A stretch of DNA of 64,000 bases from Populus alba. Taxonomy: Eukaryota > Streptophyta > Magnoliopsida > Malpighiales > Salicaceae. Where the stretch lies: contig NC_133288.1 in the NCBI RefSeq assembly GCF_005239225.2, positions 12,220,169-12,284,168 on the forward strand, given 5' to 3'. Position numbers and translations under genes: made by a program. The notes beneath the pieces were generated by a model. That model did no database searches. It saw only the letters and a list, made by a program, of their open reading frames with translations, and had not been told where the DNA came from. Positions 2 to 63,721 of the stretch are shown in pieces (the stretch's first letter is position 1; each line of letters begins with the position of its first letter).

Positions 2-2233
2 AATGAAAAACCTTTACCCGGCACATCACCCCTCTATCATACAGCTAGAATCTATACGAAAATATCCTCGTATATGCTTGATATCACTCAAACGGGTTCC
101 TACCTTGTCCGCCTTCATTTCTTTCCATTCAGCTTCAAAGGGACTCATCTTGCTGATGCTTTGTTCAATGTGTCTGCTTCAAATTTTTCACTTTTAACAG
201 ATTTTAGAGTCCCGAACAGTACTACTGAGTTCCCAGTGATCAAGGAGTTCTTTCTCACGATTGCTGCAGGAAATTTCAAAATCTACTTTCAACCAGCTGA
301 AGAAACAACTTTTGCTTTCGTGAATGCCATAGAAGCCTTTCTTCTCCCACCAAATTTCTTCATGGATAATTCAACAATTCCTCCTTTACAGACCAAAGAT
401 GGAGCTCTTAGGACACTTTATAGGATCAATGTTGGAGGTCCAGAAGTTAACGATACCCTGTGGAGGAATTGGGTTCCAGATGATGATTATCTAGCTTTTG
501 GGGGTTCGGGTGCAAGCCGTTCTTTTGGTGGTGAACTTCATGAGGCCAGTCAAGGGTTGATTGTCCAAGAAATTGCCCCTGATTCTGTGTACAAAACTTG
601 CAAAGAAGCGCGTGTAGATAATAAAGGGGCATCCAATTTTCCAAATATAACTTGGCGTTTTAACGTGAGTAAGAAAGCTAGGCATCTTGTTCGTCTGCAC
701 TTTTGTGACTTTATCAGCGAGTCACCGGGTACTGTGAAATTTGATCTCAATATATCTACCAATTTCAGTCATGTGATCGATCCTAATTCTGGTGGGTTTA
801 GTGAAATGGCATCTCCATTTTTCTACGATTTTGTGGTTCCTTCTGATGATTCCGGATATATGAGTTTTAGTATAGCCCCAGGAAATAATTCTACTGCGAA
901 AGTTGCTTTTCTGAATGGATTGGAGATCATGGAGTTTGTGGGGAACACGATAGTTGTAGTGCCTGTTGATGAACATGAGACAAAAAAACATCTAGCTCTC
1001 ATAATTGGTTCAGCTGGAGGTGTGGCTCTAGTCTTGGTTTTGATTTTATTATTCTCATTTTGTTTGAGATTAAAGCGACCAAAGCCCGTAAAAGCTGAGT
1101 TTCTTTATGGAAAAGGGAGGTCTTCCAGTTGGATAACTGAAAGAACTGAAAATGCCTCCTCCAAAGTTACTAATTTAAACCTCAAACTGAAGATATCTTT
1201 AGCTGAAATACTGGCGGCGACTCATAATTTCAATCCAAAGTTGTTGATTGGTGAGGGTGGGTTTGGCAAAGTTTATAAAGGAACTCTTGAGAGTGGTATG
1301 AAGGTGGCTGTGAAACGAAGCGATTCAAGCCATGGCCAAGGTCTTCCAGAGTTCCAAACTGAGATCATGGTCCTTTCAAAGATTCAACATCGGCATCTTG
1401 TTTCCTTGGTTGGCTACTGCGATGAAGGATCGGAGATGATATTGGTTTTTGAATTCATGGAAAAGGGGACTTTGAGGGAGCACTTATATGGGAAGGAGAG
1501 CTTAAGGAATCCATCTGCAAAAATTGAATTGACTTGGAAACAAAGGCTCGAAATCTGTATTGGCTCGGCAAAAGGTATCCATTACCTTCACACTGGTCCA
1601 GATGGAGGAATCTTTCACCGTGATGTTAAGTCAACAAACATCTTACTTGATGAACATTACGTGGCCAAAGTAGCTGATTTCGGTCTTTCTCAATTAGGAA
1701 TGCCTGATCCGGACCATATAAGCGTGGGTTTAAAAGGTAGTTTTGGTTATCTTGACCCTGAATATTTCAGAACTTTTCAGTTAACCAACAAGTCAGATGT
1801 GTACTCTTTTGGTGTGGTGCTTCTTGAAGTGCTTTGTGCTCGACCCCCTATTGTAGACTCACAGCAGAGGGAGGAAATAAACTTAGCTGAATGGGGGATG
1901 TTTTGGCAAAAGGAAGGGCAGCTTGAAAAGATTATGGATCCTCTACTAGCAGGTCACATCAACCCTAATTCGCTGAGAAAATTTGGTGAAATAGTCGAGA
2001 TGTGTTTGAAGCCACAAGGAACAGACAGGCCTAATATGATTGATGTGTGCTGGGATTTAGAATACGCAATGCAGCTTCAACAGACTGCAGTGCATAGAGA
2101 GGCACATGAGGACAACACCGCAACTGGTGTTTCATCAGATTCGGCACTCCCACTTATGCAGAACATGAGTTCTAATACGTTTCCAATGGATGATTACTCA
2201 GATACAACAGATACTGTAATGTATCCCAACTAA
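2..2233 (+). CDS. CrRLK1L/malectin-like receptor kinase, At2g23200-like, 5' partial
   Basis: The frame is open from base 2 to a TAA at 2231-2233 (743 codons visible). The ATG at 74 is internal: upstream codons in the same frame give the family-typical block SPLYHTARIYTKISSYMLDI. Roughly the first 80-100 residues, including the signal peptide, lie outside the window. Residues are counted from base 2. The malectin-like ectodomain covers about 1-320, with many N-x-S/T sites. One membrane helix lies at about 331-355. The Ser/Thr kinase spans about 410-690, with glycine loop IGEGGFG (416), the VAIK-type lysine at 438, HRD aspartate at 541, DFG aspartate at 559 and an intact SDVYSFGVVLLE block, so catalysis looks possible. 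Members sense cell-wall state or RALF peptides at the plasma membrane; for this clade that role is inferred. No intron is visible, as is usual for CrRLK1L genes. Juxtamembrane and kinase wording is closest to At2g23200, from memory. Confidence 0.95.
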   Translation, partial: NEKPLPGTSPLYHTARIYTKISSYMLDITQTGSYLVRLHFFPFSFKGTHLADALFNVSASNFSLLTDFRVPNSTTEFPVIKEFFLTIAAGNFKIYFQPAEETTFAFVNAIEAFLLPPNFFMDNSTIPPLQTKDGALRTLYRINVGGPEVNDTLWRNWVPDDDYLAFGGSGASRSFGGELHEASQGLIVQEIAPDSVYKTCKEARVDNKGASNFPNITWRFNVSKKARHLVRLHFCDFISESPGTVKFDLNISTNFSHVIDPNSGGFSEMASPFFYDFVVPSDDSGYMSFSIAPGNNSTAKVAFLNGLEIMEFVGNTIVVVPVDEHETKKHLALIIGSAGGVALVLVLILLFSFCLRLKRPKPVKAEFLYGKGRSSSWITERTENASSKVTNLNLKLKISLAEILAATHNFNPKLLIGEGGFGKVYKGTLESGMKVAVKRSDSSHGQGLPEFQTEIMVLSKIQHRHLVSLVGYCDEGSEMILVFEFMEKGTLREHLYGKESLRNPSAKIELTWKQRLEICIGSAKGIHYLHTGPDGGIFHRDVKSTNILLDEHYVAKVADFGLSQLGMPDPDHISVGLKGSFGYLDPEYFRTFQLTNKSDVYSFGVVLLEVLCARPPIVDSQQREEINLAEWGMFWQKEGQLEKIMDPLLAGHINPNSLRKFGEIVEMCLKPQGTDRPNMIDVCWDLEYAMQLQQTAVHREAHEDNTATGVSSDSALPLMQNMSSNTFPMDDYSDTTDTVMYPN

Positions 2234-5200
2234 GAATTAACGATTCCAGATGATCCCCACAGGTCAGGAATGAGCTCTCAGTGCCTCCTATTATTATATC
2301 AAAATTCTCCAACAACGAATGGACTTTGAAGTCATTTGAGTATATGCTCTAGTTAATTCATGTTGTGAGATGAGAAGTTCTAAATAACAGCAACTACGTT
2401 CACAAGCTTTGTCGATTAAACCAAGAGTGATTGAGGTGGATAGCTTGACAGATGTGCTTTTAGATGCTAATGTTCATCCCTTAGATGCATATCTGTAAAA
2501 TATAAATAATAATAAAGTTTGATTGGATGTTAAATGTAGTGAAATTGTTTCATGGTAGATTTGTCCACGGTATCTAAGAGATAGATGGAAAAAATCCTAG
2601 CTGGAATCATGGGTTTAATTTTGGTAATAAATGTGAGGGGAAGCACTTCGAGATGACTTGCTCAGAACTTGATAGGCCATCACTCTTGTTCAAACAATCC
2701 ATCTTAAGAATTAGCTTCTCCTTTTAGGAACAAATATAAAAAATGATGCACAATTTTCAAGAAATCCAACAACTCAATTAACATAATCTTTTGAGATTTT
2801 AGTTGACCCACTTAACCTAATCTCCAAGAAATCGAGTTGATCCAATTGACATGATCTTCAAATTGATCTAACTAACTCACTACATGCAAACTACCATTTA
2901 AGCTTATGGTGTCTCTCAAATGGACAAATTTGAATCTAATGTTTGCACACTTACGGAAGATTGCTCAACCCATGTTTCTTAACCCGCCCTTTATGTTGTT
3001 GGTATTTAGCACTCAATGTTAATGGGACCTTGCTTGCCATAGTTAGGTCTATAGAACAATGTTAAGGCATGTCAATGCTAGAGTATGACCCATTTAACAC
3101 CATGTTATTTTTAATAAACAATGTAACCATCAACTACTAGGGTTAATTAAATCAAATAATTACCTTTGAACTAGGTCAAATAGTGTTTTTCTATGTATGC
3201 CCTATTCATCATGTAGATTGGTGTGTTTCATGGGTTTAAAAAGACACATGAAACACTAGGTAAAATTTAATTCTTTCATTCCTTGCATGCATAAATATTC
3301 TTATTTTCTAAGCATTTGTATTTATCATCTTCTTCAATATACTTTGTTTCATACAAAACACAACCTTCAAAGTTATATACATCATACAACTAAACAAACA
3401 TAAGAATCAAAAGGTCCCTAAAGCTTTATATAGAACATGTTTTATAGGTGTCATGACCAATGCAATGTTTTTTCTTCAACTTCTTAACCTAGTTATTTTT
3501 TGTTAAAAAGACCTAAATCCAATGCAATTTTCCTTAAACTTCATTGTAATTAAGTTATATAAATATTAAACCCATCTAGTAAATTATGAGAAGTCCAATA
3601 TTGTATTGAATATGATAAACATTTTGTTACTTGGTATAAACTAAATCTTTTTTAATTAAATTTCCTCAATATACTGAAGTATTAGCATTTTATAATGTAA
3701 ATTGTAGCCCAACCAAATATTTTAGCAGGTTATGTTACTTGTTATTTTCTAGTAAAGACAAATTCCTATAGTGAAATAATAAGCTTTCTAGTCCTTATTT
3801 TGTGACTTATTTATAATTACTTAAGTTTATAACAACTTCATGAACTTTAGTGCATTGAGCATCTAGGTAAGTTTTATTATTACTTATATTTTACAAATAT
3901 TCATCCAATATTAATAAGAAGGCATAACAATTTACAACTTGAAACTCATTTGTCAAGATCATTTACCCTAATCACTTTTTGTTGAATGTTGTCGTACCAA
4001 TAATTAATTCTAAATTTAGAGAACAATGTAGTACCTATTGGGTCAATAAAGAGTGATTGATATTTGAGTTTCTAGATGTTAATTTACATGCCTTCTTATT
4101 AATATTGAATGTATATTTGTAAAACATAAGAAATAATAAAGCTTGACTAAATGCTCAATGTACTAAAATTCATGGTAGAATTGTCTAGGTTAGCTAGGTA
4201 ATGGATATGGCAATTATTAGGTCTAATCAATGCCCTAAAACGTCATGAAACAAAGACTTTATCTTGTATCAATGTCGATCCCGAGTGTAGACATAAGTCA
4301 CATCATTTCATCTCCCCAAGACAATTATGACAATCATATGAGGGAAATCCTAAAAGATTTATAACTTTTGAGTTTTGAAACTAACAAAAGAGAAGTTGTT
4401 ACATGTTGATAGATTATAGGCCACTATTAATGGAGAGCATGCATATATAATGTTTGCAACTTCTCTCACTTTATCACCTTCATAAAATCAAAACAATTAC
4501 ACATTTTCTATCTTAGTCTTAACAATTTTAGGCAAGAGTTCATCATTTTATGACTATAAACCAGCCATTAAATTACCATTAAAATTGTCTTGTTTCTTTT
4601 CTACTCTTTACAGAGGAATTTTAGTGTGATTTTGAGTTATAGAGCTAACATTCAAATGAACTCTAAATGCGTTTTGCTGAAATTTAGTGAGAAAACTCTA
4701 TTTAAGTGACATTTTTCCAATAACTTAAGAGTTTTTTTAAGTTATGATAGATATTTTTAGGGTAACTAGTGAATCCAAGGCTACCTTGTATGGGGAGGCC
4801 CTAAGAAACTTTGGATCTGAAAGCACTTTGAGTTGATCGCTTCATAAAATAACAAATTTTCAAACTCACTTTGAGCTAATATCCCTTTAAATGAATACAT
4901 TTTAAGAAATTCACTTTAAGATGATCACTCTATAAAAACTCAAATTTCAAAATCACATTGAGCATATCTCTCTTCAAACTGAATAAGTTTTCAAAAAATC
5001 ACTTTGAGAAAGTTACTCTATAAAAATATCATTTTTCATTAGGTAGATCACCTCATGATTTGACCATTTCAGAAAAATAAGGTCAACCTCTCAATTTAAC
5101 TATTTCAGAAAAATAAGGTTGGTCACCTCTAAGTTTAACCAAAATTCAAAATTCTCTAGTGGATTTGCCTCTCAAGTTTGATGGTTTTTTAACTTTTTTA

Positions 5201-14400: not shown

Positions 14401-14778
14401 TTTTGCATTGTGATTAAAACAGCTTGATTAAAAGCATTTTTGGGTTTTACACATGTTAATTTGATAAGAAAAGTATTCAAGAATTATGAAATGCAATGTT
14501 AATGGCTAAAATGCTTAGAAAACATTTTTTTGGCTTTTTTTCAAGTTTTTTTTAAATATTTTAAAAAGACATTGGAAATTACTAAATGAGTGCAATGATT
14601 TATAAAACTCTTAAGTTATTGGAAAAATGTTAACTTAAATAGAGATATCTACACCAAATTTTAGCAAATCGCAACTAGAGTTCCTTTTAGGATTTTCCTC
14701 GTGTGGTTGTCATAATTGTTCTTGGGGAGATGAATTGATGTAACTTATATCTACACTCAGGATCGACATGGATACAAC

Positions 14779-16918
14779 CATGGTTGTTAAAAACGAGTTT
14801 TGACTCGTAAAATCATCGATTTTACAAGTCAAAATGCATAAAACATGTAAAATTGGGTTTAAACTCGAAAATCGGTAAAATCGATCAAACCTGGTCAAAC
14901 TCGTATAAAATCAGGTTAACCCATAAAAACGATTCAATTTCTTGATTTCACATGAAATTTAAAACTTGTACCCTGTGCTGACTCAGCACCCCCTTTTCCC
15001 AATCCTCACCCCACCCGTGACCAACATGAATTGGGATTGTGCTAGTTGAGTAAGGAAGCTAGTACTACAACGTTGGAACCAAAGGATATGGTTCTTCATC
15101 TTTCAAAAACTAGGCTCTTATTATCTGAAGAAGAAACGATCATCATTTGGAGTGGAGAGAGAGCTGAGGGAGCATGAATTGAACCCAACACCACCATGTT
15201 AAGGGGACCTTTGTTGTCCACTTGATAACTCTAGTTTTTATTAAAGGATAAAGGATTCACCATCTCTATCTCCCCCCCTTTCTAAATGCGCAGAAGCAAG
15301 AACCATCACAACCAAGAATGAAAGAATTAGGATCTGGTTTGTTTAAAATCTTTCATTTCTTTTGCAATGTCCTTAGTTTAGTAAGAGATGGTGTCTAAAA
15401 GCTGTTTTTTATTTTTTTGGATTTTTTGTTGGTTTGTGGTGCTAGATCTGTATGTGAGACTAAAACAGAAAAGGATTTAAAAGTAGAGTATATATGTCCG
15501 TTTTGCGGCGAGGATTTTGATGTTGTTGGTCTTTTTTGCCACATCAATGAAAAACATCCTGCTGAAGCCAAGAATGGGGTATCATATTCTTATCGAGTTC
15601 TATTGATGGATGTAAATTAAAAAGTTTAGTTCTTTAGTGTTAAATTGCTTTTGGTAAAGGGTTTTATGGGGTTTGATTTTAAATGAGATAATTTGGTTAA
15701 CTGTGTGAGTTTGTTGCCTTGTTTTTTAGGATTTTTTTTATTTTATCCTAAAGCATATAAATTGGTCATTTTCTTTTTGTAACACTATTAATTACAATTT
15801 TCTAGTTTTTTTTTTGTCTAAAGACTATTACTAAAATGATATTGGAATTGTTTGTTTTCAGTTATATCCAGTTTGTGCTAAAAGGGTGGGGATGGACATT
15901 GTTACTCATATTACTTGGTAGTATGAGAACTTTTTTAATATATCCTTGTATCTCAAAATTTAACTCTTAACATTTAACATTTTGGTTCTGGTTTTTTTAC
16001 ATAATCTGGATTGGTTTACACATAACCAAACATGCATGTTTATGTAGTTCAAATGTTAATTATATGGAAAAGTGACCTAGGTAATGTTGGTAACTGAAAA
16101 TCTGTTTAGTGAATCTCTAGGCTCATGAGAAACTTTCAACATCAAAAAGGTGCTTAGGAATCTCCTATCTTGTTAGTTACCGGTTAACGGTGTCCGAACT
16201 ATTAGTTTGTATCGACTTCTCTATTGAAGTTCCTTGACTGGAGATTACGTGTAGCATAAGAGGAGAGCGCGGAAGGGGGGAGCTAACTCAGCATTTTCTA
16301 TACTGAGAAAAGAGCTGCAAGAAGGAAGTTTACAATCCCTTCTTGGTGGATCTTCATGCTTTGTTTTGTCCTCCAATACAAAACTTGATCCATTGCTTTC
16401 ACCTTTCATATTTCTTGTCATAGTTTTGCAGAATTGGAAAACTTAAAACTAAGGTTCAACTTCCTGCAGTATGATGTTAGTGTTTTCCTTTTCTGTTAAT
16501 CTTTTCACTAGTTAAGCTTTTTCATATTTTTATAGTGAAAAGAGTTGTGTTATAACCTAGTTTCCATGGAAATTTCACATGCCCATTTAGGCAAGTCAAT
16601 TGTTACCTAGATTTGTAACCAAAAAGTTTTTATTCAAATTGAGAAAATTAGTTGTTGCTTGTATTATGGTGTTTTTGGCAGCCTCAACATTTATTAAATT
16701 TCTTATCCTTGCACAATTAGCATGTCTGATTAATTTGTGTTCAAAGTGTATTGAATTGCAGGATATAATGCATATTTAACATGTATTCTCTTCATTTATT
16801 GAATTGTGATTTTATGATTTTTAATTAAAAAAAATTTACTTGCAATTTTATGATTTTACAATTCGAGTTTATATTATATGTTCCGTGTCGTGTTAAAAAA
16901 GCATTTTTGACAACCTTG
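14779..16918 (+). mobile_element. Non-autonomous hAT-like DNA transposon carrying a Di19 gene fragment
   Basis: The element begins CATGGTTGTTAAAAA and ends with TTTTTGACAACCTTG, whose complement is CAAGGTTGTCAAAAA: a 15-bp terminal inverted repeat with two mismatches. It is flanked on both sides by gatacaac (14771-14778 and 16919-16926), a perfect 8-bp target duplication as made by hAT transposases. The homologous site in arm 1 has one copy of this octamer with one change. Near the left end is an inner palindrome (gtaaaatcatcgattttac). There is no transposase ORF. The inside carries exons of a Di19-type gene on the + strand, so this is a gene-capturing (Pack-type) element. Confidence 0.85.
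15417..16432 (+). pseudogene. Captured Di19 (drought-induced 19) zinc-finger gene fragment
   Basis: Di19 proteins are small nuclear C2H2-like zinc-finger proteins of stress signalling. Three pieces are recognisable in order. Piece 1, to 15576, encodes EYICPFCGEDFDVVGLFCHI and then a tail ending EAKNG, before a GTATC donor. Piece 2, 15862-15918, follows a TTTTCAG acceptor and encodes LYPVCAKRVGMDIVTHIT before a stop. Piece 3, 16261-16430, encodes RKGGANSAFSILRKELQEG, then SLQSLLGGSSC and a DPLLSPF block. Piece order, spacing by introns and conserved residues match the N-terminal zinc-binding domain and the central region of the Di19 family. The N-terminal residues, the end of the second finger and the C-terminal nuclear-export part are missing or unrecognised, so no normal protein is expected. 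Confidence 0.85.
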
Positions 16919-17929
16919 GATACAACATAAAGTCTTTGTTTCATGAAATTTTAAGGCTTTGACTAGACATAAGATTTGTCATATCAATTACCTAGCTAAC
17001 CTAGACAAATATGTTAATCAACACTACTAGTTGATGGTTACATTGTTTATGAGAAAATATGATGTTAAATAGGTCAAGCTCTGGCATTGACTTGCATTAA
17101 CAATATTCTATATACCTAACTATGGTAAGAAGGGTCTTATTAGCATTTAGTGCTAAATACCAATAACATATATGGTAGGTAAAGAAACATAGGTTGGGCA
17201 ATCCTGTCTAGGTATGTAAACATTAGATTCAAGCTTGTTCATCTGAGAGACACCCTAAGCTCAAATGGTGGTTTGCATTTAGTGAGTTAATTACACCAAT
17301 TTAAAGATTGTTTCAATTGGATCAACTCGGCTTTATAGAGCTTAGGTTAATTGAGTCAATTAGAATTTCTAGAGATCATGTTAACTAAGTCAACTAGGTT
17401 TTTTGAAAATTGTGCATCCTTTCTATACTTGCTCCTAAAAGGAGAAGCAAATTCTTAGGATGGAGTGTTTGAATAGGAGTGGTGGCCCATTAAGTTTTAA
17501 GCAAGTCATCTTGATGTGTTTTGCCTCGTATTTAATACCTAGAATTGAGCCTATGATTCAAACTAGGATTTCCCAATCTATCTCCTGGATATCATGGATA
17601 AATCTACCATCAATTTCAGTACATTGAACATCTAAACAAACTTTATTATTATTTATATTTTACAGATATGCATCCAATGGATGGACATTAGCATCCAGAA
17701 ACTCATCTATCAAGTTATCCACCTTAATTTTTTTTTTTTTGAATAGGTGCTTCCAACCCAAAGAATTACTAAGGCATTTGGTATAATTTGCAAAGCTTCT
17801 AAATGTTCTTGTTGTTAGTTAGAACTTCTCATCTGACAACATGAATTAATTATAGCATATACTCAAATGACTTCAAAGTCCATTCATTGCTGGAGAAATT
17901 TGATATAATAATAGGAGGCATTAAGAGCT

Positions 17930-18629
17930 CATTCCTGACCAGTGAGGATCATCTGGAATTGTTAATTCTTAATTGGGATACATTGAAGTACTTGTTGTAT
18001 ATGAGTAATCATCAATTGGGAACATATTAGAACTCATGTTCTGCATAACTAGGAGTGCTGAATTTGATGAAACACCTGTTGTGGTGTTGTCCTTATGTGC
18101 CTCTCTATGCATTGTAGTTTATTGAAGTTGCATTGCGTATTCTAAATCCCATCACACATCAATCATATTAGGCATGTCTGCTCCTTGTGGCTTTAAACAC
18201 TTCTATATTTCACCAAATTTTCTCAATGAATTAGAGTTGATGTGACTTGCTAGTAAAGGATCAATAATCTTTTCAAGCTGCCCTTCCTTTTGCCAAAACA
18301 TCCCCCATTTAGCTAAGTTTATTTCCTCTCTCTACTGTGAGTTTACAATAGGGGGTCGAGCACAAAGCACTTTAAGAAGGACCGCACTAAAAGAGTACGC
18401 ATCTGACTTGTTGGTTAACTAAAAAGTTCTGAAATATTCAGGGGTAGTATAAACAAAACTACCATTCAAACCCATACTTATTATATGGTACGGGTTAGGC
18501 ATTCCTAATTGAGAAAGACCAAAATTAGCTACTTTGGCCACGTAATGTTCATCTAGTAAGATGTTTGTGGACTTAACATCATGATCAAAGATTCCTCCAC
18601 CTGGACCAATGTAAAGGTAATAAAGACCC
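17930..18629 (-). pseudogene. Truncated receptor-kinase pseudogene (copy of the gene at 2-2233)
   Basis: On the - strand this reads like the kinase gene from subdomain VIb to the stop, with many substitutions. The HRD motif has become DHD, DFG has become NFG, and several stop codons occur, for example in the stretch equivalent to the ESQQREE region and after the QLQ block. The equivalent of the normal stop and the 3' UTR is also conserved. Everything upstream of the HRD region is missing because an LTR begins at 18630. It cannot encode a working kinase. Confidence 0.9.
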
Positions 18630-24500: not shown

Positions 24501-24847
24501 TTTTAATTTTTGGTGTTTTTTGTTATTCTTAGATTTTTCAAAAAATTTATCAAAAAAAGGGTAAAAGATTTGGTAACAACAACGAGCATTGGTCAACTAG
24601 ATTATCAATTTAATCAGTCATCTTTCCATCCATCTATTTATTCTATCTATCTATTTATTTTTATGAAACATCATAATTTTTAGTGTTTTTTGTTATTCTT
24701 AGATTTTTCAAAAAATTTATCAAAAAAAGGGTAAAAGATTTGGTAACAACAACGAGCATTGGTCAACTAGATTATCAATTTAATCAATCATCTTTCCATC
24801 CATCTATTTATTCTATCTATCTATTTATTCTTATGAAACATCATAAT
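24501..24847. repeat. Near-perfect 170-bp tandem duplication upstream of the HOS15-like gene
   Basis: The block beginning near tggtgttttttgttattctt at 24511 repeats at 24681 with the same content (aaaaaagggtaaaagatttg, acaacgagcattggtcaac, and an ATCT-rich run). Only a few differences are visible over about 170 bp. It lies 350-700 bp before the ATG of the next gene. Confidence 0.92.
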
Positions 24848-58971: not shown

Positions 58972-61900
58972 ATGGAGATATCTTTGTTAGAAGTGCTTCT
59001 GAAAAATATCTCTGCATTTTTGCATATATCAAAAGATGACAAAATTAGCTCAGATCCAGTTCAGAAGTACTACCAGAAGGCAGAAGAGATACTAAAGCTG
59101 CTGAAGCCAATACTTGAAACCATTGTTAATTCTGAAGTAGCTTCTGATGAAGTGCTTAATAAGGATTTCCAAGAATTGGGTCAATCTGTTGATGAATTGC
59201 GGGAGATATTTGAGAACTGGCAACCATTGTCAAGCAAAGTTCATTTTGTAAGTTTTGAACGATATTTTTGTTATTATAGATGGCATGTTTGTTCTACTTG
59301 TAGATTTTCGTGATGGTGTCAAAGCAGACCTTGGCTTAGCATTCTCATGATTATTTCTTTTTTACTTTAGTAAATGCCATTAGCATGCATAAGGATATTT
59401 AGTCCCTTTATTTATATTACGATTACCAATATGGATGGCATTTTCATTCTACCCGTAGATTTTGAGGATGGTGTTAAAGCAGACCTTGGTTTAGCATCCT
59501 CAGGATCATTTCCTGTTTGACTTTTGCAAATGTTGTTGTCTAAGGATATTAAGTCCCTTTATCTATGTTTTTTTATTAGCAACTTTCCGTTGTTGATGGT
59601 GTCTAAGGTGGGAATGCAGCATGATTGTTTGAACAACAAAGATGGAGTGTGGTAGTGGTGATAGGAATTCTTGCATGGGTTGTTGAAAACGAAATGCTAA
59701 GTTGTTGATGCAACAGTGGTGGATTCAGTGTTGGTGGTTCTGGTCTTGTTAATTTGTTCACTTCATTAATATTCACTGATGGTCATTTCATTTATAATCA
59801 AATTTTTTCTCTTGATCGAAATGCAATAATTGCGAATGTTGGTAGTAGATGGAGTGTTGTTGAACAGGCTTCAGTTTGTTTTGAGATTTATATGAATGTG
59901 AAATTCTTGGAAGTATTTGTCTGTGCAATTTGATTAGTTGAAGCTTAGGAGTTGTTGTAGCTGCATCATCTTCATTTTTGCTGATGTTTTTTTTATACTT
60001 TACATCTTGAAATTGGATGTAGGCATTTAATTTATCCTATCCATTTTTAGAACAATGAGAGTTGAAATCTTGAAATATATGCATTGCTTTGGAATATTTG
60101 TGCTATTTAGCACACTAACTTATAACTTACCTTAATCGAGTATATGAACTTTAATTTTTTTTGTTTCAGTACACTGACTTTTTCCAAAAATTTCAATAAT
60201 TTATTTCTTTCCACTTTCGGTCATTTTTTCTGTTATAAAATAGCGTATCATTTGCTCTTAAATCTCCATGAGAACTCAACTTTCATCTTATTTCAATAAA
60301 GCACATGAACTTCAATATTTTTTATTCTGATACACTAAACGTTTTTTTATTGTTCCCACCAAATGCTTCAGTCAATTTTTCATTTTTAAATGTGGATCTT
60401 TTGGTAAAAGTACCCTCTAAAATAAGATTATTTTAATAATAGAAAATTTTTTAAATTAATAAGTTGCTTTTTAAAAAAATAAGATAAATCATTTTAAGAA
60501 GTAAAACTCTTTTTATAAATAGTATGTCATCTACATAAAGACTAAAAACTATTTTATTATTATTTAAAATTAACAAATAAATTATATATACAAATAAAAT
60601 ATTTATTATTTTAAAAAATAATAGCATATGATTGCAATATAAATGGAAAGTTAATGGAATCATGATAGAGAGATCACATTAAAAAAAAATACTTTAGTTA
60701 ATTCAAAAAGGAATAGAGGTGCTACATTAAGAAAATAAATATTTTAATTGTATCAACAATGTACTAAAAATAATTTTATTTTATAGTGTATTTTTTTAAA
60801 AAAATACTCACATTAAAAAAAAAAAAATTGACCAAAGTACTTGATTGAAACAATGAACAACTCTGGTGTATTAAAATGAAAAAGATTAAAGTTCATGCAC
60901 TTGATTGATATATAATGAAAGTTAGAGTACCAACAATGATTTAAGGGCAATTGACATGTCATTAAATAATGAAAAAAAATGATGGAAGGTGGACGAATGT
61001 ACTTGATTGAAATTTTTGAAAATGTTGGTTTGTTGAAACAAAAAAAATGAAAGTTAATGTACTTGATTGAAAAATGGTGTAAAGTTGGTGTACTAATAGT
61101 GCAATTATCCCATCTTCATTTAATTTTCATTATTTACTATTTTCTTCATTGTGTTCTTCATCACTTTTGAATAACAGATAGAGCTAATTACTATAGGAAT
61201 AAAAAGATAATGCTATATGTTTGCAACCATTTTAAAGGGACAGGCTTGTTTGGCTAATCTTGTCTTGTACATGACGTCTAGGTTCTGCAAATTGAATCAT
61301 TAACATCGAAAATTTGTTCTCTGGGCCTGAATAGTTTTCAGCTGTTGAAGGCTTCCCATCAACAACTACCAGATGAATTAAGTTCATCATCTCTTGAGGT
61401 ATTTGTCCTCAAAATCTTGTTATAAACATTTAGTTTATGGATAGTGCATACATCTCAATAAGGTATAATGTATACTCTTTTATGATGCCTAACAATTTAA
61501 TATCTGATTGCAGAACTGCATACAGAAAATTAAACTTTCTGGGTATGTACAAACATCATCCATCATTAAAGAAGCTATAAGTGGCCAGGAGGAGGGTGTT
61601 GGACCCAGCTCAGAGATCTTGGTGAAAATTGCAGACAGCCTGTGCTTGAGGTCCAATCAGGAGATTTTGATTGAAGCAGTGGCCCTAGAGAAGTTAAAGG
61701 AGAATGCTGAACAAGCTGAGAAAACTGCAGAAGCTGAGTTTATTGATCAAATAATCACCCTTGTGACCCGCATGCATGAACGCCTTGTTCTAATAAAGCA
61801 GTCCCAGACATATAGCCCAGTCCCAATACCTGCTGATTTTTGTTGTCCTCTCTCTCTTGAGTTGATGACAGATCCGGTAATTGTGGCATCAGGGCAAACT

Positions 61901-63721
61901 TATGAGCGGGCTTTCATTAAAAACTGGATTGAACTTGGGCTCACTGTGTGTCCCAAGACACAGCAGACTCTGGCTCACACTAATCTCATAACTAATTACA
62001 CTGTGAAGGCATTAATTGCAAATTGGTGTGAGTCAAACAATGTGAAGCTTCCTGATCCCATAAAGTCCATGAGCTTCAATCAGCCATCACCACTTCTTGT
62101 GCATGCAGAGTCTATTACATCCAGGGAGCATGTTCTTTCGCATCCAAGGGGCAGCCAGCCAATATCTTCTGAGTCAAATCAGACTACTGGTTCACCTGGT
62201 CAGAACATGATCTCTTCCAGTGGAATCCAACGAGAGGGAAGTTCTCCACTACATTCACATTCTACTTCTGAGAGTTCCTTGTCAGTTATAGTTGGAAATG
62301 GCCAGGGTTTGGATATTGCAAGAATATCATCACTAATGAGTTCTGAAGAAAGGTCCAGTAACTCAGAAGAGAGGAATTTGGATTCAGTTCACCACTGTTC
62401 TGCATCACCATCTAGAAAGGAAGTTTCAACTTCTGTTAGAGCTGATGGTCTACTATCTCAGAACCATAATAGAAGTGCATCGGCCTCCAGTGCACTTGGT
62501 CATGCAGCTTTTCCTCAAGGAGCATCAGGAGATGCCAATGAATCTTCCGAGTTCTCAAACCATCTTACATCCTACAGCAGTGATATTTCTGGGGAGGTAA
62601 AGCCAGAGCCACAGGCATCTTCTGCCTTGCACACCCCACACAGAGAACCTGAGTTCCCATCCCGTTTGGTTGATACACGGTCTAGAAGCCAAATAATCTG
62701 GCGCCGGCCTTCTGATAGGCTTGTGCCAAGGATAGTTTCTTCTTCAGCTATTGAAACAAGAGCTGATCTTGGTGGCATTGAAACAGAAGTTCGGAACCTG
62801 GTCGAGGACTTGAAGAGCACTTTGGTTGATACTCAAAGAGATGCAACAGCTAAACTTAGGCTACTTGCTAAACACAACATGGATAACCGGATTGTTATAG
62901 CAAATTTTGGGGCCATTAGCTTACTGGTCAACTTGCTTCGCTCAACAGACTTGAAAATTCAGGAAAATGCTGTCACAGCTCTTCTTAACTTATCAATTAA
63001 TGATAACAACAAAACAGCGATTGGCAATGCAGATGCTATTGAACCCCTGATTCATGTCCTTGAAACAGGAAGCCCTGAGGCTAAAGAGAACTCAGCTGCC
63101 ACACTCTTTAGTCTCTCTGTGATCGAGGATAACAAGGTCAGGATTGGAAGGTCTGGGGCAATTGTACCACTGGTTGATTTACTGGGCAATGGAACACCCA
63201 GGGGGAAGAAGGATGCAGCCACAGCTTTGTTTAATTTGTCAATATTTCATGAAAACAAGGACCGGATTGTACAAGCTGGTGCTGTTAAACATCTTGTGGA
63301 ATTGATGGACCCGGCAGCTGGGATGGTTGACAAGGCAGTTGCTGTTTTGGCAAATCTTGCGACGATTCCAGATGGAAGGAATGCTATTGGTCAGGAGGGT
63401 GGGATCCCTGTCCTGGTTGAGGTTGTCGAGTTGGGTTCTGCAAGAGGGAAGGAAAATGCAGCCGCTGCTCTCTTGCAGCTTTGCACAAATAGTAGTAGGT
63501 TTTGCCACATGGTGCTCCAAGAAGGTGCTGTCCCACCATTAGTGGCTTTGTCTCAATCTGGTACTCCAAGGGCTAAAGAAAAGGTACGAGATTGAAGATG
63601 CTTTTCAATATTCTCTCTTTTTTCATGAAAGTTTAGGATAACGAGTTTTTGTTGCTTGCAGGCACAGGCCCTTCTTAGCTTTTTCAGAAACCAGCGGCAT
63701 GGTAACGCTGGAAGGGCTTGA
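58972..63721 (+). CDS. PUB4: U-box/ARM-repeat E3 ubiquitin ligase, PUB4-like (4 coding exons)
   Basis: Coding exons: 58972-59247, 61282-61398, 61514-63583, 63662-63721; all GT/AG, phase 0; 2523 nt, 840 aa (Arabidopsis PUB4 about 826). The start is the first ATG after the acceptor at 58966 and begins MEISLLEVLLKNISAFLHIS. Domains: an N-terminal helical UND region at about 1-230; a U-box at about 237-310 (ADFCCPLSLELMTDPVIVAS, then SGQTYERAFIKNWI), which recruits E2 enzymes; a serine-rich variable linker at about 315-550; ARM repeats at about 560-835 with NAVTALLNLSINDNNK-type repeats for substrate binding; and the end FFRNQRHGNAGRA. Arabidopsis PUB4 acts in root meristem, tapetum and immune or chloroplast turnover pathways. 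Orthology is by remembered sequence, but similarity runs over the full length. The 2.0-kb intron after the first coding exon carries an inverted-repeat element. Confidence 0.95.
59281..59585. repeat. 155-bp direct duplication in PUB4 intron
   Basis: The block starting tggcatgtttgttctacttg at 59281 returns at 59436 (tggcattttcattctacccg), and both continue through gtagatttt, gatggtgt-aaagcagacctt, and end near aggatatt-agtccctttat. Identity looks like roughly 85-90 percent. It lies just downstream of the exon donor at 59247 but does not include it. Confidence 0.85.
60091..61111. mobile_element. Long-terminal-inverted-repeat (MITE/MULE-like) element in PUB4 intron
   Basis: The first 160 bp and the complement of the last 160 bp match loosely. 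The left end reads ttgtgctatttagcacact, then gaactttaattttttttgtt and aaaaatttcaat; the right-end complement reads attgcactattagtacacc, then taactttcattttttttgtt and aaaaatttcaat. The inside is AT-rich without a convincing ORF. Similar 'attgcac-attagt' ends are common in plant non-autonomous Mutator-like elements, from memory. Exact target duplication was not determined. Confidence 0.65.

What the first reader, a model, noticed from the sequence alone, without database searches (positions are those of the whole stretch)
14779..16918. Gene-capturing hAT-like element carrying a piece of a Di19 stress gene
Sequence shows a 15-bp terminal inverted repeat (two mismatches), a perfect 8-bp target duplication (gatacaac), and three Di19-like exon pieces with introns on the + strand. 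The paralogous arm keeps the unoccupied target at 4263-4270. Pack-type capture is well known for Mutator-like elements; a hAT example is less usual. The captured part includes the zinc-binding fingers, so sense or antisense transcripts could pair with the parent Di19 mRNA (inference).
Basis: partly seen in the sequence, partly recalled or inferred. Interest (0 to 1): 0.75.

Follow-up and report, generated by a model that had tools for sequence, protein, structure and literature searches.

The report
Gene-capturing hAT transposon with Di19 piece
A small non-autonomous plant jumping gene has picked up pieces of three host genes, including a drought-response gene; it is a clean example of a known kind of element, and the drought-gene piece it carries is broken and decaying.

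Summary
Window 14779-16918 is a 2,140-bp non-autonomous hAT element with 15-bp TIRs (13/15), a perfect 8-bp TSD and an unoccupied paralogous site at 4263-4270 (7/8). Of 16 paired elements with these ends, 16 have an 8-bp TSD (13 perfect, 3 at 7/8). Three 4.7-4.8-kb relatives share the ends and carry transposase frames; BED, DUF659 and hAT-dimerisation domains were confirmed in one, L042.

The element is more composite than reported. It carries DNA of three genes on three chromosomes: DEG5 (antisense, two pieces around Di19), 1,083 bp of Di19 with introns (92% to the C8 gene), and an apparently intronic ACT-repeat-gene piece. Two sister elements have the DEG5 piece without Di19, so DEG5 probably came first.

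The Di19 piece has a frameshift and two stops, exons as diverged as introns, and excess C:G>T:A change at CG/CHG sites, consistent with a methylated, decaying fragment. Pack-hATs are already described: a new member of a known kind. Pairing with Di19 mRNA is untested.

The parts
14771..14778 (.). left target-site duplication GATACAAC
14779..14793 (+). left terminal inverted repeat, 13/15 to the right one
14779..14929 (+). left end shared with the family and with the transposase-bearing elements (75-76% identity to L042-L044)
14930..15026 (+). subterminal stretch shared with the C1 and C5 sister elements
15027..15253 (-). captured DEG5 piece: part of the first exon plus upstream DNA (exon read by eye), 90% identical to the C11 donor, antisense relative to Di19
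15254..15285 (.). filler shared with the C1 and C5 sister elements; source not found
15331..16413 (+). captured Di19 segment from the C8 gene, introns included, 91.8% identical
15331..15336 (+). last 6 bp of Di19 exon 1
15446..15578 (+). Di19 exon 2 (first zinc finger), with a 1-bp deletion relative to the parent
15862..15939 (+). Di19 exon 3 (second finger), with an in-frame stop at 15919-15921
16249..16413 (+). Di19 exon 4, 5' part (start of Di19_C), with an in-frame stop at 16252-16254
16414..16479 (.). filler of unknown source
16480..16543 (-). second DEG5-locus piece, which lies about 24 bp from the first piece in the donor (89% identical)
16534..16684 (+). captured ACT-repeat (ACR-type) gene piece, apparently intron, 89% identical to the C7 donor
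16799..16918 (+). right end shared with the family
16904..16918 (-). right terminal inverted repeat
16919..16926 (.). right target-site duplication GATACAAC
4263..4270 (-). unoccupied target octamer (GATACAAG, 7/8) in the paralogous inverted arm

Best explanation
It is a Pack-hAT: a non-autonomous hAT element whose ends belong to a family with transposase-bearing members (BED + DUF659 + hAT dimerisation) and whose interior is copied host DNA. Shown: TIRs, 8-bp TSD, empty site, other insertions with the same ends, transposase-bearing relatives with the same kind of ends, and matches to three donor genes on three chromosomes. Shown by comparison: two sister elements hold the DEG5 piece without Di19, which most simply means DEG5 was acquired first. 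Inferred: mobilisation in trans by the family transposase. Inferred: the pieces were added by repair of breaks inside the element that copied ectopic templates and switched between them; the signs are small sub-gene fragments, short fillers at joins, a DEG5-derived stretch interrupted by Di19 with about 24 bp missing, and no clear internal TIR relic. Inferred: after insertion the element was methylated and decayed; it encodes no intact Di19. The confidence given is for the identity as a Pack-hAT with three donors; I hold the break-repair route at about 0.75.
For: TIR/TSD; empty site; 16 of 16 paired elements with an 8-bp TSD, 13 perfect and 3 at 7/8; L042, L043, L044 with the same ends and TSDs of 8/8, 8/8, 7/8; PF04937 4.4e-58, PF02892 2.2e-6, PF05699 2.1e-9 in ORFs of L042, the only one of the three scanned; right end 92% identical over 109 bp to L023, a deletion derivative wholly covered by L042. 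Donors: Di19 on C8, paralogue on C10; DEG5 on C11, best PDB match 'Protease Do-like 5, chloroplastic' 1.1e-63; ACT-repeat gene on C7, PF01842. Sisters with DEG5 but no Di19: L011, L012. Decay: 49 changes derived in the element (35 C:G>T:A) vs 18 in C8 (4 C:G>T:A), Fisher p = 5.5e-4; C>T at 16 of 95 CG+CHG sites vs 19 of 298 CHH, p = 0.003; exons 32/382 vs introns 46/693, p = 0.33.
Against: The left end is only 75-76% identical, and the last 288 bp only 63-67%, to the three transposase-bearing copies read, so the exact partner subfamily was not identified. Two fillers (15286-15330, 16414-16479) have no donor found. Only one join (DEG5/ACR) was examined for microhomology: the simplest overlap is 2 bp ('AG'); a 7-bp shared run (0.0005 of 20,000 random junctions) needs a 1-bp indel. 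The TIR-relic scan had no shuffled control. L011 and L012 could in principle have captured DEG5 independently, though the shared filler after it (476-503/507) speaks against that. The Fisher tests were chosen after seeing the data.
Confidence: 0.93

Rival explanations
1. On how the cargo was acquired: by fusion of neighbouring insertions, where two family elements flanked host DNA and the outer ends were mobilised together (the model favoured in PMC8903248).
For: Published for other Pack-TYPE families, with similar hAT examples mentioned (PMC8903248, section 9 read).
Against: Donors lie on three chromosomes; the DEG5-derived stretch is interrupted by Di19; the best internal match to a TIR is 11 of 15, without a shuffled control. 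In the four donor-side loci read (L009, L010, L013, L014) no match to the left end was found, only matches of 41-114 columns at 65-80% to the right-end region, none reaching the terminus.
Confidence: 0.12
2. The captured Di19 piece is functional: its transcript, a fused protein or small RNAs act on the parent Di19 mRNA.
For: High identity to the parent; splice-site motifs are kept. DEG5 upstream DNA is present, though by its orientation it would drive transcription leftwards, away from Di19 (inference).
Against: 1-bp deletion and two in-frame stops; exons no more conserved than introns; excess C:G>T:A change as expected in methylated DNA. No RNA, small-RNA or methylation data could be examined.
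Confidence: 0.05
3. A degraded Di19 pseudogene from local or segmental duplication, with chance inverted repeats.
For: The window is AT-rich, and 2 other TIR+TSD coincidences occur in it.
Against: Empty site with one octamer; ends shared by other insertions with 8-bp TSDs; Di19 piece lies inside the ends and is cut within exons 1 and 4.
Confidence: 0.01

Closest known systems
Pack-hAT elements of maize and rice (PMC8903248, passages and section 9; authors Gisby and Catoni recalled)
   Same: hAT ends, 8-nt TSD, non-autonomous, internal host-gene DNA
   Different: Different host and TIR family; three donor genes in one element; an order of capture is suggested by sister copies
Pack-TIRs of animals, including Pack-hAT-N8_XT of frog (PMC8277862, passages)
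   Same: TIR element with copied host DNA; gap-filling/template-switching model
   Different: Plant element; no second copy with the Di19 piece was seen among the scored matches
Pack-MULEs (recalled)
   Same: Gene fragments, often from several donors, inside TIRs
   Different: MULEs have about 9-bp TSDs and usually long TIRs (recalled); this has 8 bp, short TIRs and a hAT transposase family

Membership tests
hAT superfamily | 8-bp target-site duplication | tested here: met
   Perfect at this locus; 16 of 16 paired elements at 8 bp, 13 perfect and 3 at 7/8
hAT superfamily | short terminal inverted repeats | tested here: met
   15 bp, 13/15
hAT superfamily | related autonomous-type element with hAT transposase | tested here: met
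   L042-L044 share the ends; BED, DUF659 and Dimer_Tnp_hAT found in L042 ORFs, the only ones scanned
hAT superfamily | mobilisation of this element by that transposase | not testable with these tools
   needs a transposition assay; left end only 75-76% identical to those read
Pack-TYPE | non-autonomous: no transposase inside | tested here: met
   longest stop-to-stop frame 73 aa, Di19-derived; interior 152-1852 unrelated to L042
Pack-TYPE | host-gene DNA between the ends, donor gene elsewhere in the genome | tested here: met
   DEG5, Di19 and ACT-repeat donors on C11, C8 and C7
Pack-TYPE | DNA-level capture (introns kept) | tested here: met
   Di19 introns align with the parent
Mutator-like (Pack-MULE) | about 9-bp TSD (recalled) | tested here: not met
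   8 bp; 9-bp frames match at most 5 of 9 in the 16 elements

The most novel reading that the evidence does not exclude
The whole family, not just this copy, serially gathers gene fragments: 15 of 16 paired elements have a longest interior stretch of 524-3607 bp unrelated to the transposase-bearing copy L042. Each acquisition would be nested inside the last by break repair within the element, giving a readable order of captures in a tree genome. Cautions: some of these interiors are shared (L018a/b; L020, L024 and L025), 10 of 10 ORFs scanned from three interiors had no Pfam match, and the donor searches did not complete.
Probability: 0.3. Interest if true: 0.5.

Novelty: new member of a known kind. 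Interest (0 to 1): 0.33.

Why it matters
It is a well-documented Pack-hAT in what looks like a poplar-type genome: an empty site, three identified donor genes, sister copies that suggest the order of capture, and transposase-bearing relatives. The DEG5-Di19-DEG5 arrangement bears on the choice between two published acquisition models (fusion of neighbours versus break repair with template switching). It is not evidence for a new regulatory mechanism.

Tried and rejected
Chance inverted repeat: rejected. Mutator: rejected on TSD length. Retrocopy of Di19: rejected because introns are kept. Intact Di19 protein: rejected on frameshift and stops. Fusion of neighbours: disfavoured, not excluded.

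Led nowhere: a Pfam scan of 10 single ORFs that I picked from the interiors of L015, L021 and L028 gave 0 families for 10 of 10. ORFs from the interiors of L011, L016-L020 and L024-L027 were not scanned, so the cargo of the other family members is unknown, except for the DEG5 piece in L011 and L012. Own-genome DNA searches with the interiors of L028, L021 and L015 did not complete. The paper searches for a known hAT family in Populus listed nothing that I recognised as this family.

Rows dropped: of 20 loci, L009, L010, L013 and L014 were fetched as donor-side loci; L012 and L022 showed only one family end and were left out of the TSD count. The remaining 14 loci gave 15 elements (L018 has two); with the window element that is 16.

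Full report
Setting. The window is a piece of a 416-Mb genome (G000, C5:12220169-12284168) held in 96 contigs. Its genes are plant genes; contig sizes and the C8/C10 Di19 pair suggest a poplar-type genome, which is inference from recalled knowledge.

Observation. TIR, TSD and coordinates are as reported. The window has an inverted duplication, seen as four BLAST pieces between 1581-4356 and 14684-18621 at 81-89% identity. The unoccupied arm carries one copy of the octamer (7/8). With the element and one octamer removed, 177 columns align without a gap at the site. The insertion therefore most likely came after the duplication.

Family. Searching the own genome with the element gave 49 matches; 40 of 568 candidates were scored, so counts are lower bounds. 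Of the 49 rows, 40 fall wholly within the two ends (1-243 or 2012-2140). Of 20 loci fetched, 14 hold 15 elements with both ends. With the window element that makes 16, all with an 8-bp TSD (13 perfect, 3 at 7/8). Other register lengths match worse: at most 3 of 7, 5 of 9, and 5 of 10 apart from L011 at 7 of 10. One element, L023, is wholly covered by the transposase-bearing type and carries a 186-aa frame of it. A protein search with that frame gave 151 matches (150 of 232 candidates scored). Three of these loci were read, L042-L044: elements of 4,797, 4,753 and 4,717 bp with the same ends and TSDs of 8/8, 8/8 and 7/8. ORFs of L042 carry zf-BED, DUF659 and the hAT dimerisation domain; L043 and L044 have similar frames, not scanned. 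The other 15 of 16 elements have a longest interior stretch of 524-3607 bp unrelated to L042. These are not 15 independent interiors: L018a and L018b are 99.5% identical, and L020, L024 and L025 share interior DNA at 93-95%.

Cargo. Element positions 553-1635 match the C8 Di19 gene at 91.8% including introns; the C10 paralogue is more distant (71% and 87% over two pieces). The segment starts 6 bp before the end of exon 1 and stops within exon 4. Positions 249-475 and 1702-1765 match two parts of a C11 locus that lie about 24 bp apart there. The gene's downstream exons match DEG5 (PDB 4ic5, 1.1e-63; exon pieces joined by X); by eye the captured part is the first exon, with a start codon, plus upstream DNA, antisense to Di19. 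Positions 1756-1906 match, apparently as intron, a C7 gene with ACT domains. Sister elements on C1 (L011, 1,002 bp, TSD 8/8) and C5 (L012, left end only) share 1-507 and 1-503, including the first DEG5 piece and the filler after it, but neither Di19 nor the second DEG5 piece. The simplest order is DEG5 first and Di19 later, between the two DEG5 pieces; a single repair event that visited DEG5 twice is the alternative for the second piece.

Decay. Against C8, with C10 as outgroup, 49 changes arose in the element and 18 in C8; 10 were ambiguous and 1 had no outgroup base, of 78 differences in 1,075 aligned sites. In the element 35 of 49 are C:G>T:A, in C8 4 of 18 (Fisher p = 5.5e-4), and those C>T changes favour CG and CHG sites (16 of 95 against 19 of 298, p = 0.003). 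Exons (32/382) and introns (46/693) diverged alike (p = 0.33). A 1-bp deletion and two stops break the frame, while the splice motifs looked for remain. I read this as a neutral fragment that was methylated; methylation itself was not observed. C8 change since capture (18) against half the C8-C10 divergence (177 of 1052) puts capture very roughly at a fifth of the age of the C8/C10 split.

Mechanism. Three unlinked donors, interrupted pieces, fillers and no clear internal TIR relic (best 11 of 15, no shuffled control) favour copying during repair of breaks inside the element over fusion of neighbouring insertions. The DEG5/ACR join has a 2-bp overlap on the simplest reading. PMC8277862 (passages) reports microhomology of 1-36 bp, median 2, at one or both breakpoints of 190 (67.6%) animal Pack-TIRs. 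PMC8903248 (section 9 and passages) favours tandem insertion and re-mobilisation for plants.

Novelty. Pack-hATs are described (PMC8903248 and PMC8277862, passages). I saw no paper on this family or on a Di19 capture in the listings, which show titles and the starts of abstracts only. PMC8954995 (passages) describes eight five-exon Di19 genes in poplar and, in the passages seen, does not mention capture. The regulatory idea remains untested.

Noticed in passing
L009 (C8) Di19 intron 3; window 15940-16248: The third Di19 intron has U12-type AT-AC signals (exon|ATATCCTT, branch TTCCTTGAC...TTAC|exon; motif recalled), and the captured copy keeps them.
   Followed up: partly
window 1581-4356 and 14684-18621: Inverted duplication in four BLAST pieces, 81-89% identical; the element sits in one arm only.
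   Followed up: partly
window 24504-24847: Tandem pair of 174 bp, 98% identical.
   Followed up: no
window 61508-63595: Long frame of 695 aa resembling a U-box/ARM-repeat protein, by eye only.
   Followed up: no
C1, C8, C19 (L042-L044): Transposase-bearing hAT copies with long frames and TSDs of 8/8, 8/8 and 7/8, perhaps recently active.
   Followed up: partly
L018 2740-1320 and 6518-5098: Two copies of one family element, 99.5% identical, lie about 2.4 kb apart with different TSDs, suggesting recent local transposition.
   Followed up: no
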